IMG/VR virus record: IMGVR_UViG_3300035158_000033
Span: 1 to 20,347 of that record
Length of the DNA: 20,347 bases
Direction: 5' to 3' (one strand)
Source: a virus
In this document: in pieces, positions 1-20,220 of the stretch
Layout of the letters: each line of letters starts with the position of its first letter
Numbering within the stretch: the first letter of the stretch is position 1
Position numbers and translations under genes: made by a program
The notes under the pieces: model-generated
What the model was told of the DNA's origin: nothing
Database searches by the model: none
The model's input: the letters and a program-made list of their open reading frames with translations, nothing else

Positions 1-318
1 CAAGCCCGGTTGACGTTCGATCAAAACAACATCGGGGGCGGGGTCCCGGGAACGTTGACCGTTCCGACAACCGGGATTGACGTTGACCTTTCCGCCTTGA
101 CGCTTGTTGGTTGGGCCCGGTTCGTGAATCTTGATGACACAAACATTGTTCAACACGGTCCGAAAGTTGCGGGGACGTTTCACCCCTACGGACAGATGAA
201 GCCCGGGGAACCCGCCCAATTCCGGATTGACCCTTCCGCCGTTGCCGAGGGGAACACTGTTCACTTGAAAGCGGACACCGCCCCTTGCCTTGTTCAAGTC
301 ATTGTTCATGAAGATTGA
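1..318 (+). CDS. Small virion-type protein, 5' end outside the window
   Basis: The frame is open to base 1, so this is probably the C-terminal part of a gene that starts upstream. A TTG at position 10 could serve as a start, but I see no ribosome site for it. The visible ~105 residues are beta-rich and soluble, with segments ALTLVGWARFVNLDD and FHPYGQMKPGEP and a short acidic end. This resembles a small protein I recall from head regions of other siphophages (a VGYARFRNLD-like motif, then a G-x-F-x-P segment), which has no established function. It ends two bases into the region before the GT32 gene and sits just upstream of portal-region genes, which fits a structural or accessory head role. 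No catalytic motif is seen. Confidence 0.6.
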   Translation, partial: QARLTFDQNNIGGGVPGTLTVPTTGIDVDLSALTLVGWARFVNLDDTNIVQHGPKVAGTFHPYGQMKPGEPAQFRIDPSAVAEGNTVHLKADTAPCLVQVIVHED

Positions 319-329
319 CGGGGGAACCG

Positions 330-1016
330 ATGGGGATTGCAAGGCAAGAGAGAATCCCGCCCCGGGTCCATCACGTTTGGCTTGGGGCAAAACCCATCCC
401 GCCGCTTTATGAGCGGTCAATGGAATCATGGAAGATTAGACATCCCCGTTGGGAACAAAAGGTTTGGCGGGAAGAAGACTTGTTTTCCCTTCCGTTGACC
501 GGGGAACTTTGCAAGCGGTTTGAAAGCAACCCCGTCTTTGTTTGCGACATTGCCCGGACGGAAATTGTCTTTCAAAGCGGGGGGATATACGCGGACGTTG
601 ACATTGAACTTTTGCGTCCCATCAATTATATGAGACACGCCCCGCAAATCTTGGGTTGCCGCTTGGACTTGGGAAGCGGGGCGGAAGACGCCCCAACAAC
701 TTGTTTCTTCGGGTTCCCCGCCGGAAGCCCCTTCTTGAAAGCGGCAATTGAAAGCTTCATTCAATTTGTCGAAAGCATCCCGGACGGTCAAGCGTATCAT
801 CCGGAAACAAACGGGATTGACGGACGTTGGGAAGGGGTTTGGCGGTTGAACCCGATTCCCTTCAACTTCCATCATTGCTTCCGGTTTTCAAGAACCATCG
901 GACACCGTTCATATATGATCGACAAGACCCGGGCGGAATTGTTTGGGATTCATCACTTGAAGAATACTTGGCGGGGGAGCAAGATTGAAGCGGACCCCCT
1001 TGAAGCGAAAGGTTGA
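330..1016 (+). CDS. GT32-like glycosyltransferase (DXD sugar transferase)
   Basis: A 228-residue protein read from ATG 330, preceded by a GGGGAA ribosome site. An upstream in-frame TTG at 315 is less likely because it overlaps the previous stop and lacks a site. The N-terminus PPRVHHVWLGAKPIP matches the start of the glycosyltransferase sugar-binding DXD family (Gly_transf_sug/GT32: I-P-x-x-I-H-x-x-W-x-G). The metal and nucleotide-sugar binding motif is GGIYADVDIELLRPI at residues 84-98, with D89-V-D91. The family transfers a sugar from a nucleotide sugar using a divalent metal. The acceptor is unknown. It ends 4 bases before the portal start, so it is embedded in the head gene block. It may work with the glycan enzymes at 17196-19894, but that is inference. 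Confidence 0.82.
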   Translation: MGIARQERIPPRVHHVWLGAKPIPPLYERSMESWKIRHPRWEQKVWREEDLFSLPLTGELCKRFESNPVFVCDIARTEIVFQSGGIYADVDIELLRPINYMRHAPQILGCRLDLGSGAEDAPTTCFFGFPAGSPFLKAAIESFIQFVESIPDGQAYHPETNGIDGRWEGVWRLNPIPFNFHHCFRFSRTIGHRSYMIDKTRAELFGIHHLKNTWRGSKIEADPLEAKG

Positions 1017-12605: not shown

Positions 12606-15083
12606 ATGCCAGCGGGAACAAAAGGCGGAATCAAGGCGGGAAGGGCTTTCATCGTCATCGGGGCGGTTGATCGAACCGCAATGGTCATGCGGCGGATTGC
12701 CGCGAAGATGAAAGCGTTTGGGGCCCGTATGGCCGCAATCGGTCAACAAATGATGATGCAATCATTGTTGATCTTGGTTCCCGCCGGGTTGGCAATCAAG
12801 AAGTTTGCAACTTTTGATGACGCCTTGAAGAAGGTTGAAGCCCGGGCAAAGGGAACGGACAAGCAACTTGCGGAGTTGCGGGAACAAGCGAAAGAACTTG
12901 GGCGGACAACTTCATTCACTGCGGTTCAAGTGGGGGAACTTCAAGCTTCATTGGGTCAAAAGGGTTTCGGGCGGGGGCAAATCAAGGATATGACGGAACA
13001 CGTTTTGGCCCTTGCCCGGGCAGCGGGGGAAGGCGGGGAAGCGGATGTCACCGTTGCGGCGGATGTCATCGCGGGAACGTTAAAAGCTTTCAAGATGGAA
13101 TCCGAAGACGCGGCGGAAGTTGCGGATGCCTTCGCCTTTGCGGTCAACAATTCAAACTTCACATTGCAAGGGATGATGGACGGGATGCAAAAGGTTGCCC
13201 CAATGGCCCACCAAATGGGGCTTTCCCTTGAAGAAACAATTGCAACACTTGCTTCAATGACAAACTTGAACATTCAAGCAACCGAAGCGGGAACCGCAAT
13301 GACAAGCTTTTTGGCCCGGATGTCGAAAGCGGAGTTCACCGGGAAGTTCAACAAGGGACTTGAAGACGCGGGGATTGCGGCGGTCAAGTTCCGGGACGCG
13401 GAAGGGGATTTGCGGGGGCCGCTTGAATTGTTCGCGGAAATCAACGAAAAGACAAAGGACTTGGGAACCGCCGCAAAGGCGGACATCCTTTCCGTTTTGT
13501 TTGGCGTCCGTCAATTTGGGAAGGCAATGGGTGGGATGGGGGAAGCGGTCAATTCAATCGACTTGTTCAACCGTCTTGTCAACGAAGCGGGGGGAACCGC
13601 TTTGAAGACATCAAAAAAGATGGATGAAGGACTTGGGGGAACGTTCCGGATGTTGAAGTCCGCCCTTGAAGGGGTGCAAATCGCAATCGGGGAAGCGTTG
13701 GAAGAACCGTTGCAAAAGCTTGGGGCCCAATTGATAACGTTTTTGGGCGGGATGACGGAATGGATTGAAAAGAACAAGGGCTTGATTGTCTTGATTGTTT
13801 CCATCGGGGCCGCAATGGCCGCAACGGGTTTGACGTTGTTGATTGTTGGCGGTATCATCAAGTTGATCGGGGCCGCAATCGGGGTCCTTGCCTTTGCCTT
13901 CACCGCGTTGAAGGTTGCAATCGGTTTGTTGATTTCCCCCTTCGGTCTTGTTGTCTTGGCGATTGCGGCGGTTGGCGTTGCCCTTTACACGCTTTCATCG
14001 GACGCCCGGGAAATCATGAACAAGATCGGGGGGTTCATCGCGGAAAAGTTCAAGGCAATCGGGGAAACAATCGGGGAGACCTTCAAGGGTATTCTTGACG
14101 CAATCGCGGTTGGGGACCTTCAAGCCGCTTGGGAAATCTTCGGGCAGGGAATTACAACAACTTGGCTTCAAGTCGTTGACACCCTTGCAACCGCTTGGGA
14201 AAACTTCGCAACGTTTTTCGTTGAAGCTTGGCAAGGGGCCAAAATGGCAATCAAGCAAACTTGGTTTGGAATCCAAAAAGAGATTTCAACCGGAATCTTG
14301 CGTCTTGCGGAAGACGCGGGGGTTCTTGGGGAATTGCTTGACGTTGTTGTTGGGACGGATGTTTCCGAAACAAAAGCCAAGTCCGAAGCGTTGGAAGTTC
14401 AACGCCAACAAATCTTGCGGAACCGCTTGCGGACGTTTCAAGATGAAATGAAAGAACTTGAAGAACAGCGAAGAAGGGCGGGACCAGGAACGGAACTTCA
14501 CAAGGAATTGGGGGAAAGCATTGAAACCTTGCAAGTCCGGATTGATGACTTGATGGAAAGCGTTGGGACGTTGAATGACGGGTATGAAGATTCAATCGCC
14601 AATATGCAACAAACGTTTGATGACAAGATCGAACAAGCGGCGGTTGACGCGGCCCAAAGTCTTGCGTCTTGGGATGACAAGGTTTCCGCGTCCCGCAAAG
14701 CCCGGGAAGCGGAAATCAAGACGGAAAAAGAAGCGTTGCGGCGGATGCTTGATGAAATCCGGGCAAGGCGGGACCAAAAAGAACAACTTGACGCAATGGC
14801 GGAAATGGACAAGGAAAGGATGGAAGCGGAAGAAGCTTTCGGAAAGTCGATGATGGAAGGGGTCGCGGGACAAGGGCCCCTTGCCCCGGGTCTTCCGGGA
14901 ATCGACGTAACACCGCAAAAGGCGTTGGAACAAGGGACCGTTGCCGCCGCCCAAAAGGTTGCGGAAATCCAATTCCGGGAAGGGACCGCCAACAAGCAAC
15001 TTGCGGAAGCCCGGAAGACCAATGACCTTCTTGAAGAACAAAACGTCATGTTGAAAGAACTTGAACCCGTTGGGGGTGTTTGA
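12606..15083 (+). CDS. Tail tape measure protein
   Basis: An 825-residue protein from ATG 12606 with GGAAAGGG upstream. Residues ~60-320 match the phage minor tail (PhageMin_Tail/TP901) core: helices with FDDALKKVEARAKG, ELGRTTSFTAVQVGELQASLGQKGF and the long VAADVIAGTLKAF and MTNLNIQATEAGTAM segments. A hydrophobic stretch covers ~392-463. Residues ~590-750 are charged coiled coil (RNRLRTFQDEMKELEEQRRR). The end is acidic and Glu-rich. The protein sets tail length and spans the tube; 825 residues would give about 120 nm at 1.5 angstrom per residue, if fully helical. It follows the chaperone pair as expected. Confidence 0.92.
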   Translation: MPAGTKGGIKAGRAFIVIGAVDRTAMVMRRIAAKMKAFGARMAAIGQQMMMQSLLILVPAGLAIKKFATFDDALKKVEARAKGTDKQLAELREQAKELGRTTSFTAVQVGELQASLGQKGFGRGQIKDMTEHVLALARAAGEGGEADVTVAADVIAGTLKAFKMESEDAAEVADAFAFAVNNSNFTLQGMMDGMQKVAPMAHQMGLSLEETIATLASMTNLNIQATEAGTAMTSFLARMSKAEFTGKFNKGLEDAGIAAVKFRDAEGDLRGPLELFAEINEKTKDLGTAAKADILSVLFGVRQFGKAMGGMGEAVNSIDLFNRLVNEAGGTALKTSKKMDEGLGGTFRMLKSALEGVQIAIGEALEEPLQKLGAQLITFLGGMTEWIEKNKGLIVLIVSIGAAMAATGLTLLIVGGIIKLIGAAIGVLAFAFTALKVAIGLLISPFGLVVLAIAAVGVALYTLSSDAREIMNKIGGFIAEKFKAIGETIGETFKGILDAIAVGDLQAAWEIFGQGITTTWLQVVDTLATAWENFATFFVEAWQGAKMAIKQTWFGIQKEISTGILRLAEDAGVLGELLDVVVGTDVSETKAKSEALEVQRQQILRNRLRTFQDEMKELEEQRRRAGPGTELHKELGESIETLQVRIDDLMESVGTLNDGYEDSIANMQQTFDDKIEQAAVDAAQSLASWDDKVSASRKAREAEIKTEKEALRRMLDEIRARRDQKEQLDAMAEMDKERMEAEEAFGKSMMEGVAGQGPLAPGLPGIDVTPQKALEQGTVAAAQKVAEIQFREGTANKQLAEARKTNDLLEEQNVMLKELEPVGGV

Positions 15084-15084
15084 G

Positions 15085-15981
15085 ATGCCGCAAGTCTTGG
15101 GAATAAAGAACGCAAGTCATTCCGCAAGCTTGAAGCTTGAAAAGCGAGAAAAGCTTTGGGCAAGACGCAAGACGTTCCGGCGGACCTATTACGTCTTGTC
15201 GGATGACGTAAACCAAACCGAAGATGACATTGTTACAACAACGGGAATCCCGCCGCTTTTTTCCGCGTTGAACGGGGCGTTTTGTGTGTCCCAAGACCCG
15301 AAAGAAAACTCCCGGGTTGTCCATCCGTTGACCGGGGTTCCCACAATCCTTTGGGAAGTTGATTGCAAGTTTGATTCAAACGTTGACGTTGAACAAGACC
15401 AACCGCCGGAAGCCAAGCCCCCGGTCTTGCGATGGTACGGGGAAAGCGAAGAAGAAGTCCTTGAAAAAGACCTAATCACCGAAGACCCCATCCGGACGGA
15501 CGCGGAAGAACCGTTGATAGTGACAACGCAAATCCCGATTGCCGTTCTTGAAATCAAGCGTTATGAGTTCTATCCGTTCGATCCGGATATCATTTTGAAT
15601 TACGGAAACCATGTCAACACCGGGGCTTTTTACGGGGCCCCGTTGGGAACCGCGTTGATGATGCCCCCTTCCGCCGATGAAGAAACAATTGAAGGCGTCA
15701 AGTATGTTTCCGTAACATATCGGATCAAGTTCAAAATCCGCAAGATTGCCGGGGCAATGCAAGTTCAGACTTGGAAAGCCCGGGTTCTTCACGTTGGATA
15801 CAAGTTCAAGAATGATGACGGGAAGATTGCGATATATGAAGACAAGGACGGGAACCCCGCCCAAGTTTTCCTAATCAACGGAACCGGGAAGAAGAAAGCA
15901 ACCGGGGCGGACCCGGACTATAAAGAGTTCAACCGATACCCTTGGGCCGATTTCAACGCCTTGAACTTGGGCCCGTTTTGA
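15085..15981 (+). CDS. Putative distal tail/minor tail protein
   Basis: A 298-residue protein read from ATG 15085, 1 base after the tape-measure stop, with GGGGGTG as a site inside the end of that gene. An upstream in-frame TTG 15061 would overlap the tape measure. It is mostly beta-rich (IPIAVLEIKRYEFYPFDPDI, YVSVTYRIKFKIRKIAGAM, TWKARVLHVGYKF) and has repeated short loops. No signal or membrane segment is seen. Genes right after the tape measure usually encode distal tail or baseplate-hub parts, which is the basis for the call. I recognise no specific family. Confidence 0.5.
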   Translation: MPQVLGIKNASHSASLKLEKREKLWARRKTFRRTYYVLSDDVNQTEDDIVTTTGIPPLFSALNGAFCVSQDPKENSRVVHPLTGVPTILWEVDCKFDSNVDVEQDQPPEAKPPVLRWYGESEEEVLEKDLITEDPIRTDAEEPLIVTTQIPIAVLEIKRYEFYPFDPDIILNYGNHVNTGAFYGAPLGTALMMPPSADEETIEGVKYVSVTYRIKFKIRKIAGAMQVQTWKARVLHVGYKFKNDDGKIAIYEDKDGNPAQVFLINGTGKKKATGADPDYKEFNRYPWADFNALNLGPF

Positions 15982-16010: not shown

Positions 16011-17171
16011 ATGGTTTGGGGATTCAACGAAAAAGAAGACGCCCTTTTTGCAAAAGAAGTTGCAAGGGAAAGAAGAACGAACCCTTGGAAGAAGACCGGG
16101 TTTCAATTCCCGGGGCGGGGCTTCAACTATTTGCGGGCGTATGTTGTTTCTCCGCAAGAAGTCATCCCGGGGGCCCGAAGGGTTGGAAACAAAGTCTTCT
16201 TGGGGTCCGGGAAATGTTGCGTCTTCATCCGGAAGAAGAATCTTGAAGAAGACGCTGCAAGGCGTCCGGAAAACTACTTGCAGACAACGGAGTTGATTCC
16301 CCGCCTTGATGAAGACGGGGACCGTCTTTTTGTTCGGGTCTTCAACCTTTGCCCGGAAACAATTCAACCCGTCAACGCTTGCGGCAAAGGATCGGAAGCC
16401 AACCTTGGTTGTGATGAACCGCTTTGCTTCGCGGTTTCGGATGTTTGGGGGGACTTGTATATTGTCAAGCAATGCGAGTGTCCTTGTTCTTCTTCTTTTT
16501 CCCTTTCATCCGCCGCTTCCGTTTCAAGTATCCCATCCGTTTCGGAATCCGTTTCCGCTTCGGAATCAAAATCCCTTTCCATTTCGGAATCGGTTTCCGT
16601 TTCGGAATCGGTCCCGTCTTCTTCCGCAATCGGTTCCGCTTCAATCCCGTCCGTTTCGGAATCCGAAGTCCCTTGCGATTATACGGGAACCGTTCAAGTC
16701 TACGTTCCAACCGCAACCTTTTCCCCGTTCACAATCACAATTCCGACCAAAATCTTGACGTATCGGGACGGGTTGCTTTGCACCGTCACCGATGGAAGCC
16801 CAACGTCAATTGACATTTCCCAATGTTGCTTGTATTGTTGCCCGTCTTCATCTTCAAGCAGTTCCGCTTCCGTTTCGAAGAAGCTTTTGGGCTTGTCCCA
16901 TAATCCGGAGCCGGCGGAATCGGTTTTGGAATCCGAACCCCCAACGCCCCCTTCATCTTCGGATGGGGCCGCTTCCGTTTCCGTTTCCGTCCCGCTTTCA
17001 TCTTCGGAAGGGGTGTCCGTTTCGGAATCCCTTTCCGTTTCGGAATCGGAATCAAAATCGGTTTCCGCTTCGGAATCCGTTTCGGAATCCGTTTCCGCTT
17101 CGGGGTCCGCAAGTCTTCCGTCCGTTTCCGGGTCCGTTGGGTCAACAAGCCCAACAAGTTTGTCAAGTTGA
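16011..17171 (+). CDS. Cys/Ser-rich repeat tail surface protein
   Basis: A 386-residue protein in five parts. Residues 1-155 form a globular N-terminal domain with several Cys (GKCCVF, NLCPE, NACGKG, CDEPLC). At ~155-159 lies a CECPC cluster, then a Ser/Val/Glu-rich tract to ~220 built from S-V-S-E-S type units. Residues ~221-275 are a second domain (DYTGTVQVYVPTATF...DISQCCLYCC). Residues ~278-386 are a second Ser-rich tract with the same S-E-S-V-S units. Each Ser tract follows a Cys cluster. Such tracts are usually extended stalks and typical O-glycosylation targets. The two genes that follow encode fused glycan enzymes, so I infer a glycosylated tail fibre or adhesin. Assignment to the tail rests on its place after the tape-measure region. 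Confidence 0.62.
   Translation: MVWGFNEKEDALFAKEVARERRTNPWKKTGFQFPGRGFNYLRAYVVSPQEVIPGARRVGNKVFLGSGKCCVFIRKKNLEEDAARRPENYLQTTELIPRLDEDGDRLFVRVFNLCPETIQPVNACGKGSEANLGCDEPLCFAVSDVWGDLYIVKQCECPCSSSFSLSSAASVSSIPSVSESVSASESKSLSISESVSVSESVPSSSAIGSASIPSVSESEVPCDYTGTVQVYVPTATFSPFTITIPTKILTYRDGLLCTVTDGSPTSIDISQCCLYCCPSSSSSSSASVSKKLLGLSHNPEPAESVLESEPPTPPSSSDGAASVSVSVPLSSSEGVSVSESLSVSESESKSVSASESVSESVSASGSASLPSVSGSVGSTSPTSLSS
16488..16671 (+). repeat. First Ser-rich repeat tract (degenerate DNA repeat)
   Basis: Units like TCCGTTTCGGAATC and TTCCGCTTCGGAATC recur with small changes and encode SVSES/SASES-type residues 160-220. The repeat is degenerate, so there is no exact unit length. Slippage could change stalk length. 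Confidence 0.75.
16845..17168 (+). repeat. Second Ser-rich repeat tract (degenerate DNA repeat)
   Basis: The same GTTTCGGAATC-like units recur, mostly at 16975-17110, and encode residues ~279-386. An interrupted stretch (KKLLGLSHNPEPAE) lies near 16875-16920 and breaks the Ser pattern. Confidence 0.72.
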
Positions 17172-17198
17172 AAAGGGGACAATCAAGGGGACATCATG
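17172..17198 (+). promoter_or_regulatory. Doubled ribosome-site segment before the GT25 gene
   Basis: AAAGGGGACA appears at 17172-17181 and AAGGGGACA again at 17185-17193, just before ATG 17196. The second copy is the AAGGGGACATCATG start context used by several genes here. The duplication may strengthen initiation. Confidence 0.5.
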
Positions 17199-18548
17199 AA
17201 ATTGAAAGACGCTTTCAAAAGGGTCTATTGCGTCAACTTGAAAAGACGCCAAGACCGTTGGGAACAATTTCTTGAAGGGTTGCCGGATGATTGGCCCTTT
17301 CCCAAGATTGAACGCTTTGAAGCGATTGATGGAAAGAAGGCGAAGCATCCCGATTGGTGGAAGGCGGGGCCTGGGGCTTGGGGATGTTACCGTTCCCACC
17401 TTCGGATTCTTGAAGATTGCTTGAACAACGGAATCCCGTCCGTCTTGTTGCTTGAAGATGACGCTTTGTTTCTTCCGGACTTCCGCCGCAAGGTTGAACG
17501 CTTCTTCAAGTTTCTTCCGGAAGATTGGGAAATGATATATCTTGGCGGACAACACTTGATGATCGACAAGCACCCGCCGCTGAAGATCAACAAAGCGGTC
17601 TTTCAACCCTTCAACGTCAACCGGACGCACGCCTTCGGGATTCGCGGGGATATGATCCGCGTTGTCTACAAACACTTATTGCGGAATGATTGGGTCAACG
17701 CCCAACATATTGACCATCACTTAGGCCGCTTGCACCAAGGGCGGGACCACCGCATATACTGCCCTTGGGAATGGTTGGTTGGTCAAGCGGAAGGACAAAG
17801 CAACATTTCCGGACGGAATCCCCCGGACCGCTTTTGGGCCCCCGCCGAACAACTTGAAGCGTTTGACGCGGAAGCTTCCCCGTTGGTTGTTGTCATCGGT
17901 CTTCATTCATCCGGGTCTTCCGCCCTTGCCGGGGTCTTGCATCATTTGGGACTTCACTTGGGCAATCGACTCGTGGGATATTACGGGACGGACCCCAACG
18001 GGGCTTGCGGGTTTGAAGCGGTCCGCTTGTTTCAGATATGCGAAAAGGCAATCCCGTTCCCCGCAACGGAACGGAAGATCAAGCGGGGGGAACTTTGGGC
18101 CGAATTGCGGGCGTTCATCAACGAAAAGAAGCGGGAAGCTTTCTTCAAGGGAACGCTTGCCGCTTTGAAGTATCCGCAACTTTGCCAAATGGGCCCACAA
18201 CTTCGCAACCTTTGCGGGAAGAACTTGCGGGTCATTCATATTGACCGCCCGATTGAAGATTCAATCCGGTCAATGCAAAAGCGTCCGGATGTCAAGCGGA
18301 ACGGAATCAAGCCCCGGGACGTTGCGGAACATCAACGTTGGCTTGCGGAAGGGAAGCAAGACTTGCTTCAAAGCTTGCCCCCTTCCCAAGTCTTGACCGT
18401 CCGGTTCAAGACCCTTCTTTCCCATCCCCGCGTTGCAATCACGCAAATCAAAAAGTTCTTGAGGATCAAGCCAACCCGGGAACAAATTCAACGGGCCCTT
18501 GATTCCGTTGACCCGTCAAAGCAAACCGTCAAAGGGGACAAACAATGA
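17196..18548 (+). CDS. GT25-family glycosyltransferase fused to sulfotransferase
   Basis: A 450-residue two-domain enzyme from ATG 17196. Residues ~8-200 match the LPS glycosyltransferase family 25: VYCVNLKRRQDRW at 10-22, ERFEAIDGK at 39-47, GAWGCYRSHLRILED at 60-74, and the acidic catalytic-type LLLEDDALF at 84-92. Residues ~229-430 look like a sulfotransferase: the PAPS-binding P-loop GLHSSGSSALAGVLHHLG at 235-252, and a later RVIHIDRPIEDSIRSM segment at 345-360 resembling the 3'-phosphate binding region. The enzyme would add a sugar and could sulfate it. It follows directly after the Ser-rich tail protein. The family calls rest on motifs; acceptor and sugar are unknown. Confidence 0.8.
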   Translation: MKLKDAFKRVYCVNLKRRQDRWEQFLEGLPDDWPFPKIERFEAIDGKKAKHPDWWKAGPGAWGCYRSHLRILEDCLNNGIPSVLLLEDDALFLPDFRRKVERFFKFLPEDWEMIYLGGQHLMIDKHPPLKINKAVFQPFNVNRTHAFGIRGDMIRVVYKHLLRNDWVNAQHIDHHLGRLHQGRDHRIYCPWEWLVGQAEGQSNISGRNPPDRFWAPAEQLEAFDAEASPLVVVIGLHSSGSSALAGVLHHLGLHLGNRLVGYYGTDPNGACGFEAVRLFQICEKAIPFPATERKIKRGELWAELRAFINEKKREAFFKGTLAALKYPQLCQMGPQLRNLCGKNLRVIHIDRPIEDSIRSMQKRPDVKRNGIKPRDVAEHQRWLAEGKQDLLQSLPPSQVLTVRFKTLLSHPRVAITQIKKFLRIKPTREQIQRALDSVDPSKQTVKGDKQ

Positions 18549-19894
18549 CCGTCAAAATCTGGACATATTGGGAAGACAAACCCGGGAAGAAGCGGACCCC
18601 GCTTCAAGACCTTTGCTTTGAAACGTTGAAGCGGAACAATCCGGGCTTCCGCGTTGTCGGTCCGGAAGACATCCGGAAGATGGGGGGCGGTTCCGTCTTG
18701 AAGCTTGCGGAAGGGGTCCCGATTCCGCAACGTTCCGACTTGATCCGCCTTTGGTTGCTTCACAAGAAGGGCGGGGTTTGGGTTGACGCGGACACCGTTG
18801 CAACCGGGCCCTTTGAACCGTCATTCATTGAAGCGATTGAATGCGGGGAATATGAACTTGTCGGCCATTGGAATCCCGCAATCAAGAAGGGTTGGGGTTG
18901 TGACGGTTTGCTTGCAACGCCCTTCGGGGGTCCCGCCGGTTCCCAAGCTTTGCTTGAAGGGTTCAAGCGTTGCCGGGGAATGATTGAAAACATGAAGAAC
19001 GGGAAGGGCGTTCCCTACGGTCAATCGTCCGTTGGCTTGTTGTCCCAATTATACAAGCAACAAACCTTCAAAGTCCGCCGGTTTGAACATTGGCGGTTGA
19101 GCCCGATCCCTTGGTTCCGGGCGGGAAATCTTTTCCGGAAGGAGCGGAGGTCTTGGGGTCATGAAATCGCGGGTTGTTGGAATCCCAACGCTTGCGTATA
19201 TCACTTGACCAACGTTCCCGCCGATCAATTCAAGAACGCAACCCGGGAAGAACTTTTGAAGGGAAAAAGCTTCTTGTCTTTTATCATCCAAAAGGGGCTT
19301 TGCCTTCATCCCGCCGTCCCCTTCCCCGCAATTGAAATCTTGAAGCGTCTTCCGGACGGTCCCGCCCGGATGGTTGAACTTGGCGTTCTTCGCGGAAGCA
19401 ACCCCCGCAACCTTCTTCATCAAAAGAAAGACCTTCAATATATCGGGGTTGATCCTTGGAAGAAGCTTCCGCCCGAAGACCCGGATTCAAAGGGGTCCGC
19501 GTTGTCTTTCGATTGCAGACAATGGCCCCGGATTATGGGGCAAGCCCAAAAGCTTCTTCAGCCTTTTGATGATCGGGTCAAGCTATACCGTCAAACTTCA
19601 ATGCAAGCAATCCGGGCAATCAAGCCCCGGTCCGTTGATCTTGTCTTCATCGACGCTTGCCATTCTTTCCCTTGCGTCCGGGATGACTTGCATTGGGAAA
19701 ACCGGATCAAGCCCGGGGGTTGGATTTGCGGTCATGATTATGACAACCCCGGCCGGAAGGGATACGGGGTCAACAAAGCGGTTGACCAATTCGCCAAGAT
19801 CAACGGGCTTGAGCTTGAAACCGGGGAAGGGATGACTTGGTTTGTCCGCATCCCGAAGAAGGAGTTGAAGCAACTTCCGGGGGGGACATCATGA
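18545..19894 (+). CDS. GT32-like glycosyltransferase fused to SAM methyltransferase
   Basis: A 449-residue enzyme from ATG 18545, which overlaps the previous stop (ATGA). The N-terminal part (1-~230) has the GT32/DXD signature: KIWTYWEDKPG at 4-14, PQRSDLIRLWLLHKKGGVWVD at 61-81 and DAD at 81-83. A Gly-rich segment follows. The C-terminal part (~265-440) is a class I SAM methyltransferase (Methyltransf_24 type): motif I VELGVLRGSN at 277-286, VDLVFIDACHS at 364-373 and GGWICGHDYD at 391-400. It would transfer a sugar and methylate a glycan or its carrier. It is co-transcribed with the GT25-sulfotransferase and the Ser-rich protein, which supports one pathway. Confidence 0.82.
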   Translation: MTVKIWTYWEDKPGKKRTPLQDLCFETLKRNNPGFRVVGPEDIRKMGGGSVLKLAEGVPIPQRSDLIRLWLLHKKGGVWVDADTVATGPFEPSFIEAIECGEYELVGHWNPAIKKGWGCDGLLATPFGGPAGSQALLEGFKRCRGMIENMKNGKGVPYGQSSVGLLSQLYKQQTFKVRRFEHWRLSPIPWFRAGNLFRKERRSWGHEIAGCWNPNACVYHLTNVPADQFKNATREELLKGKSFLSFIIQKGLCLHPAVPFPAIEILKRLPDGPARMVELGVLRGSNPRNLLHQKKDLQYIGVDPWKKLPPEDPDSKGSALSFDCRQWPRIMGQAQKLLQPFDDRVKLYRQTSMQAIRAIKPRSVDLVFIDACHSFPCVRDDLHWENRIKPGGWICGHDYDNPGRKGYGVNKAVDQFAKINGLELETGEGMTWFVRIPKKELKQLPGGTS

Positions 19895-20220
19895 AGAAGA
19901 AACCGCCAACCCCGATCCGCCGGGGCAATAAACCCCGGAGGTCCCGAAAAGGGGTGTCGATGAACGCAAATGACGCGGACTTGCTTGAAGTTCAAGCGAT
20001 GATTCTTCCTTTGTTGGAACGAGCAGCGGAATCGGGAAGCTTTGTTGCGGCGGTCTTCGCACCCAACGGGAATCGGGTTGTCTTGCATTGGTTGACGCAA
20101 GAGTTTCCCCCGGAAGATTTCCCCGCCTGCGTTCAATTGCTTGACGCGGAGTTGAAGAAAGAACGGGCCCGGATTGAACGCGAAGCGGCCCGGGTTGCGA
20201 AAGTGAACAAGCGTTCATGA
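19891..20220 (+). CDS. Small hypothetical helical protein
   Basis: A 109-residue protein from ATG 19891, which overlaps the previous stop (ATGA) and has GGGGACATC upstream. The start is basic and Pro-rich (MKKKPPTPIRRGNKPRRSRKG). Helices follow (ADLLEVQAMILPLLERAAE), then a beta segment (SFVAAVFAPNGNRVVLHWL), then a charged helix (DAELKKERARIEREAARVAKV). I do not recognise a family. An ORF of the same length is open on the other strand between inverted copies of the start motif. I prefer the + strand protein because its composition and coupling match its neighbours. Confidence 0.65.
   Translation: MKKKPPTPIRRGNKPRRSRKGVSMNANDADLLEVQAMILPLLERAAESGSFVAAVFAPNGNRVVLHWLTQEFPPEDFPACVQLLDAELKKERARIEREAARVAKVNKRS

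What the first reader, a model, noticed from the sequence alone, without database searches (positions are those of the whole stretch)
16011..19894. Possible phage-encoded virion glycosylation system: Ser-rich tail protein plus sulfating and methylating glycosyltransferases
A Cys/Ser-rich repeat protein directly precedes two fused enzymes: GT25-sulfotransferase and GT32-methyltransferase. These steps (sugar transfer, sulfation, methylation) are what a decorated O-glycan would need, and Ser-rich stalks are the usual kind of O-glycan acceptor. Motifs for all four enzyme activities are visible. The link between enzymes and acceptor is inferred from adjacency only. The alternative is that the enzymes alter host surface glycans to block superinfection.
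Basis: partly seen in the sequence, partly recalled or inferred. Interest (0 to 1): 0.78.

Follow-up and report, generated by a model that had tools for sequence, protein, structure and literature searches.

The report
Phage tail glycoprotein with own enzymes
An uncultured phage, probably of Planctomycetota bacteria, carries a serine-studded tail protein next to fused sugar-transfer, sulfate-transfer and methyl-transfer enzymes; comparison with dozens of related phages shows that such proteins and such enzymes travel together, so the phage very likely decorates its own particle with sugars, although no chemistry has been measured.

Summary
A Ser-rich protein (16011-17171) is followed by a GT25-sulfotransferase fusion (17196-18548) and a GT32-methyltransferase fusion (18545-19894), downstream of tape-measure and tail genes. 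Profile and structure searches support all four enzyme folds. The window is a 20-kb virus record; its kin occur in Planctomycetota assemblies.

I added comparative evidence. Of 32 dereplicated GT25-sulfotransferase loci, 29 have a Ser-tract gene within 3 kb. Starting instead from one Ser-protein family, 13 of 13 testable loci encode GT25-sulfotransferase downstream. At the window's own tail locus, two phages lacking the Ser tract also lack the enzymes. One ortholog with Thr/Ser tracts is followed by non-homologous enzymes of similar kinds: GT2-methyltransferase-like, Sulfotransfer_2 and GT2.

Caveats: the sulfotransferase of this phage has Ser where many relatives have the usual PAPS-loop Arg, so sulfation is the weakest step. 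One phage has the enzyme without a tract. No modification was measured. Best reading: a tail protein O-glycosylated in the cytoplasm by dedicated phage enzymes. Phage virion glycosylation and Ser-rich glycoproteins are both known; this pairing is a new variant. Confidence 0.66, interest 0.62.

The parts
12606..15083 (+). tape measure protein; context gene and anchor for the unbiased comparison
   Evidence: PF10145 E 1.5e-41; phrog_1533 and many other tape-measure PHROGs
15085..15981 (+). conserved tail-region protein of unknown fold (g15061; likely ATG start at 15085), always directly upstream of the Ser-rich gene in this phage group
   Evidence: 76-89% identity in three relatives, 35-52% in further ones; no Pfam or PHROG match
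16011..17171 (+). Ser-rich putative virion protein, proposed glycan acceptor
16011..16466 (+). N-terminal domain (aa 1-152), proposed virion anchor, conserved where distal parts differ
   Evidence: 60-76% identity in relatives; 26-35% in remote ones, including L011, which has no Ser tract
16467..16676 (+). Ser tract 1 (aa 153-222; 30 Ser, 0 Thr)
   Evidence: predicted disordered, pLDDT < 50 at aa 156-221
16677..16832 (+). small central beta domain (aa 223-274) with Cys pairs
   Evidence: pLDDT 82-92 over aa 221-270; 71% identity in L002
16803..17168 (+). Ser tracts 2 and 3 (aa 265-300 and 312-386; 46 Ser, 4 Thr)
   Evidence: predicted disordered, pLDDT < 50 at aa 275-386
17196..17840 (+). GT25 domain (about aa 1-215) with GCYRSH, EDD and HIDHHL motifs
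   Evidence: PF01755 E 2.4e-10; COLGALT1 E about 1e-11 by sequence and 9e-13 by fold
17880..18515 (+). sulfotransferase domain (about aa 229-440)
   Evidence: PF13469 E 1.8e-5, below gathering cutoff; TPST2 and CurM folds
17898..17921 (+). PAPS-binding loop GLHSSGSS (aa 235-242); position 238 is Ser instead of Lys/Arg
18545..19894 (+). GT32-like glycosyltransferase (N-terminal half, DAD motif) fused to a Methyltransf_24 methyltransferase (about aa 265-420)
   Evidence: PF04488, PF05704 and PF13578
19837..20220 (+). small conserved protein of unknown function downstream of the trio (true start may lie further in)
   Evidence: 36-75% identity at the same position in L002, L003, L004, L015 and L016
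315..1016 (+). third, stand-alone GT32-like gene upstream of the portal gene; link to the trio unproven
   Evidence: PF04488 E 2.8e-6; two homologs in the contig of L002, only weak or no matches in the other relatives

Best explanation
The trio is a late-expressed virion-decoration cassette of a tailed phage that probably infects Planctomycetota. The Ser-rich protein attaches to the tail through its N-terminal domain and exposes disordered Ser tracts. In the host cytoplasm, before or during assembly, the GT25 domain transfers a hexose (probably galactose from UDP-Gal) either directly to Ser or to a first sugar, and the GT32-like domain adds a further sugar. The fused methyltransferase and sulfotransferase domains cap the glycan. 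The outcome is a mucin-like sleeve on the tail. Shown here: the gene order, the four folds, linkage to Ser/Thr tracts across many phages, and joint absence. Inferred: late expression, virion location, the acceptor, the sugar, the linkage, the order of steps and the benefit (receptor or surface attachment, protease protection, or shielding from binding proteins). Sulfation in this phage is the least certain step.
For: Linkage: 29 of 32 dereplicated GT25-ST loci have a Ser-tract gene within 3 kb, against 18 of 41 GT25-only loci. Per gene, 39 of 167 within 2 kb are Ser-tract genes against 4 of 310 further away, odds ratio 23. Reverse direction: from one Ser-protein family, 13 of 13 loci with enough downstream DNA encode GT25-ST. 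Same tail locus, anchored on the tape measure: eight phages have a Ser tract plus GT25-ST; L156 (same contig as L011) and L157 keep the tail gene but have neither tract nor enzymes. L161/L167 have the anchor domain (29% identity, E 5e-11) with Thr/Ser tracts, then GT2-methyltransferase-like, Sulfotransfer_2 (4e-12) and GT2 enzymes instead. GT-methyltransferase fusions recur with different GT types and in reversed order (MT-GT34 in L046), beside a sugar epimerase gene. The nearest solved relatives of both domains of the fusion include enzymes that act on proteins: COLGALT1 and TPST2. The trio proteins have no membrane segment or signal peptide by hydropathy, so acceptor, enzymes, UDP-sugar, PAPS and SAM would share the cytoplasm. 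The tracts are Ser-specific (55% Ser, 3% Thr). Methyltransferases occur near 15 of 43 Ser-linked loci against 1 of 27 others.
Against: No modification or virion location was measured. L158 has GT25-ST but no Ser/Thr tract, and L083 and L086 are further exceptions; L083 lies among chromosomal genes. Linkage counts are not independent: labels cluster on the tree. The PAPS-loop Arg is Ser in this phage's clade. GT25 is also a lipooligosaccharide family, and a group of GT25-only phages has no Ser protein. The Pfam sulfotransferase score is just below its cutoff.
Confidence: 0.66

Rival explanations
1. The enzymes remodel host surface glycans during infection or lysogeny (for example to block superinfection), and the Ser-rich protein is an unrelated neighbour.
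For: GT25 and GT32/Caps_synth profiles are typical of LPS and capsule enzymes. Some phages carry GT25 without any Ser protein.
Against: Tight two-way linkage to Ser tracts and joint absence. Placement within a tail gene run, with 24-nt and overlapping junctions. No membrane segment in the enzymes.
Confidence: 0.15
2. The cassette modifies the virion, but the acceptor is another structural protein or the Cys-rich modules; the Ser tracts are only flexible spacers.
For: L158 has GT25-ST without a tract. The GT25 relative COLGALT1 glycosylates hydroxylysine, not Ser (established knowledge).
Against: Tract and enzymes are absent together although the other tail genes stay. Enzymes of other families accompany the Thr/Ser-tract ortholog.
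Confidence: 0.13
3. Ser-tract proteins and GT genes are both common in the tail regions of Planctomycetota phages, and the linkage reflects shared ancestry rather than function.
For: Labels cluster strongly on the GT25 tree, with few independent changes.
Against: Ser-tract genes are rare elsewhere in the same loci (4 of 310 and 6 of 352 genes). Replacement by non-homologous enzymes in L161/L167 is not explained by descent.
Confidence: 0.06

Closest known systems
Phage-encoded virion glycosylation of mycobacteriophages (Freeman et al. 2023, cited in PMC12691614, PMC11652166 and PMC10877033)
   Same: Phage-encoded glycosyltransferases O-glycosylate structural proteins (capsid and/or tail).
   Different: There the acceptors are capsid and tail-tube proteins, as cited; here the proposed acceptor is a dedicated Ser-tract tail protein, the GTs are GT25/GT32 fused to sulfo- and methyltransferase domains, and the hosts are probably Planctomycetota.
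Serine-rich repeat glycoproteins (SRRPs) of Gram-positive bacteria (PMC7948813, PMC6973325)
   Same: Ser-rich acceptor glycosylated inside the cell by dedicated enzymes.
   Different: SRRPs are bacterial surface adhesins exported by accessory Sec and initiated by GtfA/GtfB; here no Sec system and no GtfA/B match were found, and the genes sit in a phage tail cluster.
COLGALT1 (GLT25D1), procollagen galactosyltransferase
   Same: Nearest solved relative of the GT25 domain by sequence and fold; transfers Gal to a repetitive protein.
   Different: About 21% identity; acceptor is hydroxylysine of collagen; no sulfotransferase fusion.
Sulfotransfer_3, CurM and tyrosylprotein sulfotransferases
   Same: Same fold; PAPS loop SGSS and 3'-phosphate motif with Arg and Ser conserved.
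   Different: The usual Lys/Arg of the PAPS loop is Ser (Ala in one ortholog) in this clade.

Membership tests
Glycosyltransferase family 25 | Match to the GT25 profile and fold | tested here: met
   PF01755 41.1 bits against cutoff 24; COLGALT1 fold E 9e-13
Glycosyltransferase family 25 | Conserved GC..SH and acidic EDD motifs | tested here: met
   GCYRSH and LEDDA, aligned with COLGALT1
PAPS-dependent sulfotransferase | Fold and PAPS-binding motifs (5'-PSB loop, 3'-PB Arg and Ser) | tested here: met
   TPST2 and CurM fold matches; S239, G240, S241, S242, R351, S356 and S359 largely conserved
PAPS-dependent sulfotransferase | Lys/Arg in the PAPS loop (catalytic in characterised enzymes) | tested here: not met
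   Ser238 in the window; among 35 dereplicated domains 15 Arg, 15 Ser, 2 Ala, 2 Phe, 1 gap. Hence sulfotransferase-like; activity not claimed
GT32-like glycosyltransferase | DXD-containing Gly_transf_sug profile | tested here: met
   PF04488 23.8 bits against 23, PF05704 27.4 against 24.5: marginal; DAD motif present
Class I SAM methyltransferase (Methyltransf_24) | Profile match above curated cutoff | tested here: met
   PF13578 55.7 bits against 26.3
Phage virion glycosylation systems | Glycan shown on a virion protein and dependent on a phage GT | not testable with these tools
   needs mass spectrometry
Serine-rich repeat glycoprotein systems | Accessory Sec genes and GtfA/GtfB | tested here: not met
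   no such gene in the 20-kb record by its gene list and Pfam/PHROG scans of the main genes; the record is a fragment

The most novel reading that the evidence does not exclude
Planctomycetota phages have repeatedly assembled interchangeable enzyme cassettes (GT25-ST with GT-MT; GT2-MT-like with Sulfotransfer_2 and GT2) that build sulfated, methylated O-glycans on mucin-like Ser/Thr-tract tail proteins, a form of virion decoration for which I found no description.
Probability: 0.4. Interest if true: 0.8.

Novelty: new variant of a known kind. Interest (0 to 1): 0.62.

Why it matters
It would make phage particles of a poorly studied bacterial phylum glycoproteins in their own right, with the acceptor and its enzymes encoded side by side, so the system could be expressed and tested in E. 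coli. It gives a testable function to unannotated Ser-tract proteins in these viral contigs, and offers compact GT-sulfotransferase and GT-methyltransferase fusions as tools. Sulfated phage glycoproteins, if confirmed, would be a surprise.

Tried and rejected
Fold search with the Ser-protein model (mean pLDDT 53.8) gave no significant match in PDB or BFVD, so the tail role rests on position. Scanning with the full Ser protein found no relative; its N-terminal domain worked. The PDB sequence search with the GT32-MT alignment gave nothing. Promoter and terminator scans were at chance, so late co-transcription is inferred from gene order only. A first scoring by Ser alone misjudged L161/L167 as tractless; their tracts are Thr/Ser, so the Fisher value printed is not used. 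Fisher values are descriptive, since loci are related. The paper library held no description of such a system in planctomycete phages, but subscription papers are missing from it. The idea that the tracts are mere DNA slippage was set aside: repeats are short and degenerate and Ser codons are mixed.

Full report
WHAT IS THERE. The window is a 20,347-base virus record with lambda-type portal, capsid and tape-measure genes. After the tape measure (12606-15083) and a conserved tail-region gene (15085-15981) come the three reported genes, all on the + strand with short or overlapping junctions. The Ser-rich protein consists of a conserved N-terminal domain, a small confident beta domain (aa 223-274) and three predicted-disordered Ser tracts holding 76 Ser and 4 Thr.

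ENZYMES. Gene two is GT25 fused to a sulfotransferase-like domain; gene three is a GT32-like domain fused to a Methyltransf_24 domain. A 21-sequence alignment gave a confident model (mean pLDDT 90.5). Its N-terminal half matches human COLGALT1 and its C-terminal half matches CurM and tyrosylprotein sulfotransferases; sequence profiles agree. The GT32 assignment is close to its cutoffs. Across 35 dereplicated sulfotransferase domains the PAPS loop and 3'-phosphate motif are conserved, but the loop position that is Lys/Arg in characterised enzymes is Arg in 15, Ser in 15, Ala in 2 and Phe in 2; this window has Ser. The Ser form is kept over a wide range of divergence, so it looks selected rather than decayed. 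An invariant Lys325 (33 of 35) might compensate, which is speculation. I therefore do not claim that this phage sulfates.

RELATIVES AND HOSTS. Scans of viral contigs found the trio in the same order in L002, L003 and L004 and in more remote form in L015, L016 and L099. Homologs in genome assemblies lie almost all in Planctomycetota, a few in Verrucomicrobiota. The host of this window is thus probably a planctomycete (inference).

LINKAGE TEST. I called genes in all GT25-bearing loci and scored a Ser tract as at least 50% Ser over 20 aa. After dereplication, 29 of 32 GT25-sulfotransferase loci have a same-strand Ser-tract gene within 3 kb, against 18 of 41 GT25-only loci. Per gene the fused class has 39 of 167 within 2 kb against 4 of 310 further off. 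The tracts are 55% Ser but only 3% Thr. The GT25 tree shows that the labels cluster, so these counts are not independent events. Two nested clades have neither the sulfotransferase fusion nor a Ser neighbour; another clade keeps the Ser neighbour without the sulfotransferase.

REVERSE AND SYNTENIC TESTS. Starting from the N-terminal domain of a different Ser-protein family, every locus with enough downstream DNA (13 of 13) encodes GT25-sulfotransferase. Starting from the tape measure, so without choosing on either partner, the window and seven relatives carry Ser tracts and GT25-sulfotransferase. L156 (the contig of L011) and L157 keep the neighbouring tail gene, and L011 also keeps the N-terminal domain of the Ser protein, but they have no tract and no such enzymes. 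L161 and its near-copy L167 keep the N-terminal domain (29% identity) and the tail gene (35%) but bear Thr/Ser tracts, followed by a GT2 protein with a weak methyltransferase match (E 0.048), a Sulfotransfer_2 protein (E 4e-12) and a second GT2 protein. Similar activities thus sit beside the tract-bearing protein although the enzymes are not homologous. L158 is an exception: GT25-sulfotransferase without a tract.

FURTHER SUPPORT. Methyltransferase domains lie near 15 of 43 Ser-linked GT25 loci against 1 of 27 others. GT and methyltransferase domains are fused in different pairings: GT32-MT here and in L016, another GT-A-like N-terminal part (no Pfam match) in L030, L044, L078 and L079, and MT-GT34 in L046, where a sugar epimerase gene resembling UDP-glucose 4-epimerase follows. 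None of the trio has a membrane segment or signal peptide by hydropathy, which fits cytoplasmic modification during assembly.

INTERPRETATION. I take the trio as a virion-decoration cassette whose acceptor is the Ser-tract tail protein. Gene order, folds and linkage are shown; virion location, acceptor, sugar and order of steps are inferred; sulfation here is uncertain. Host-surface modification remains possible but explains neither the joint absence nor the non-homologous replacement.

COMPARISON. Virion glycosylation by phage enzymes is known in mycobacteriophages (Freeman et al. 2023, cited in PMC12691614 and PMC11652166). Intracellular glycosylation of Ser-rich acceptors is known for Gram-positive SRRPs (PMC7948813, PMC6973325), which need accessory Sec and GtfA/B, not found here. 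I found no paper on such a pairing in planctomycete phages, within a library lacking most subscription journals. I file it as a new variant of a known kind.

Noticed in passing
L023 7065-7598; L026 6741-7577; L029 5760-6275; L037 6632-7501; L039 2116-2871 and 2868-3956; L040 3375-4163; L043 746-2491; L044 10698-12509: Many Ser-tract proteins near GT25-ST end in exactly the tetrapeptide NPLP; two non-Ser proteins near GT25 in other loci end likewise. Possibly a sorting or assembly tag. The window protein lacks it.
   Followed up: partly
window 315-1016: A third GT32-like gene lies upstream of the portal gene; the contig of L002 has two homologs, the other relatives only weak or no matches.
   Followed up: partly
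window 17898-17921: PAPS-loop Arg to Ser change shared by a large clade and coupled to a GYYGxDPxxxCGFE signature, while the Arg type mostly has GGGE there. It may mark an altered donor or a non-catalytic role.
   Followed up: partly
L023 5929-7068; L034 5367-6920; L040 1681-3402: Cys-rich modules of about 45-60 aa (W[FY]CYWP...C...SGPH...CC..C.C) repeat between the Ser tracts; unassigned.
   Followed up: no
L083 7986-9317 and 1-7809: A chromosomal GT25-sulfotransferase in a Pirellulaceae assembly sits divergently beside a 2603-aa protein with a Ser/Gly-rich tract, suggesting a cellular version.
   Followed up: no
window 19837-20220: A small basic protein conserved directly downstream of the trio in several relatives; no function assigned.
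   Followed up: no
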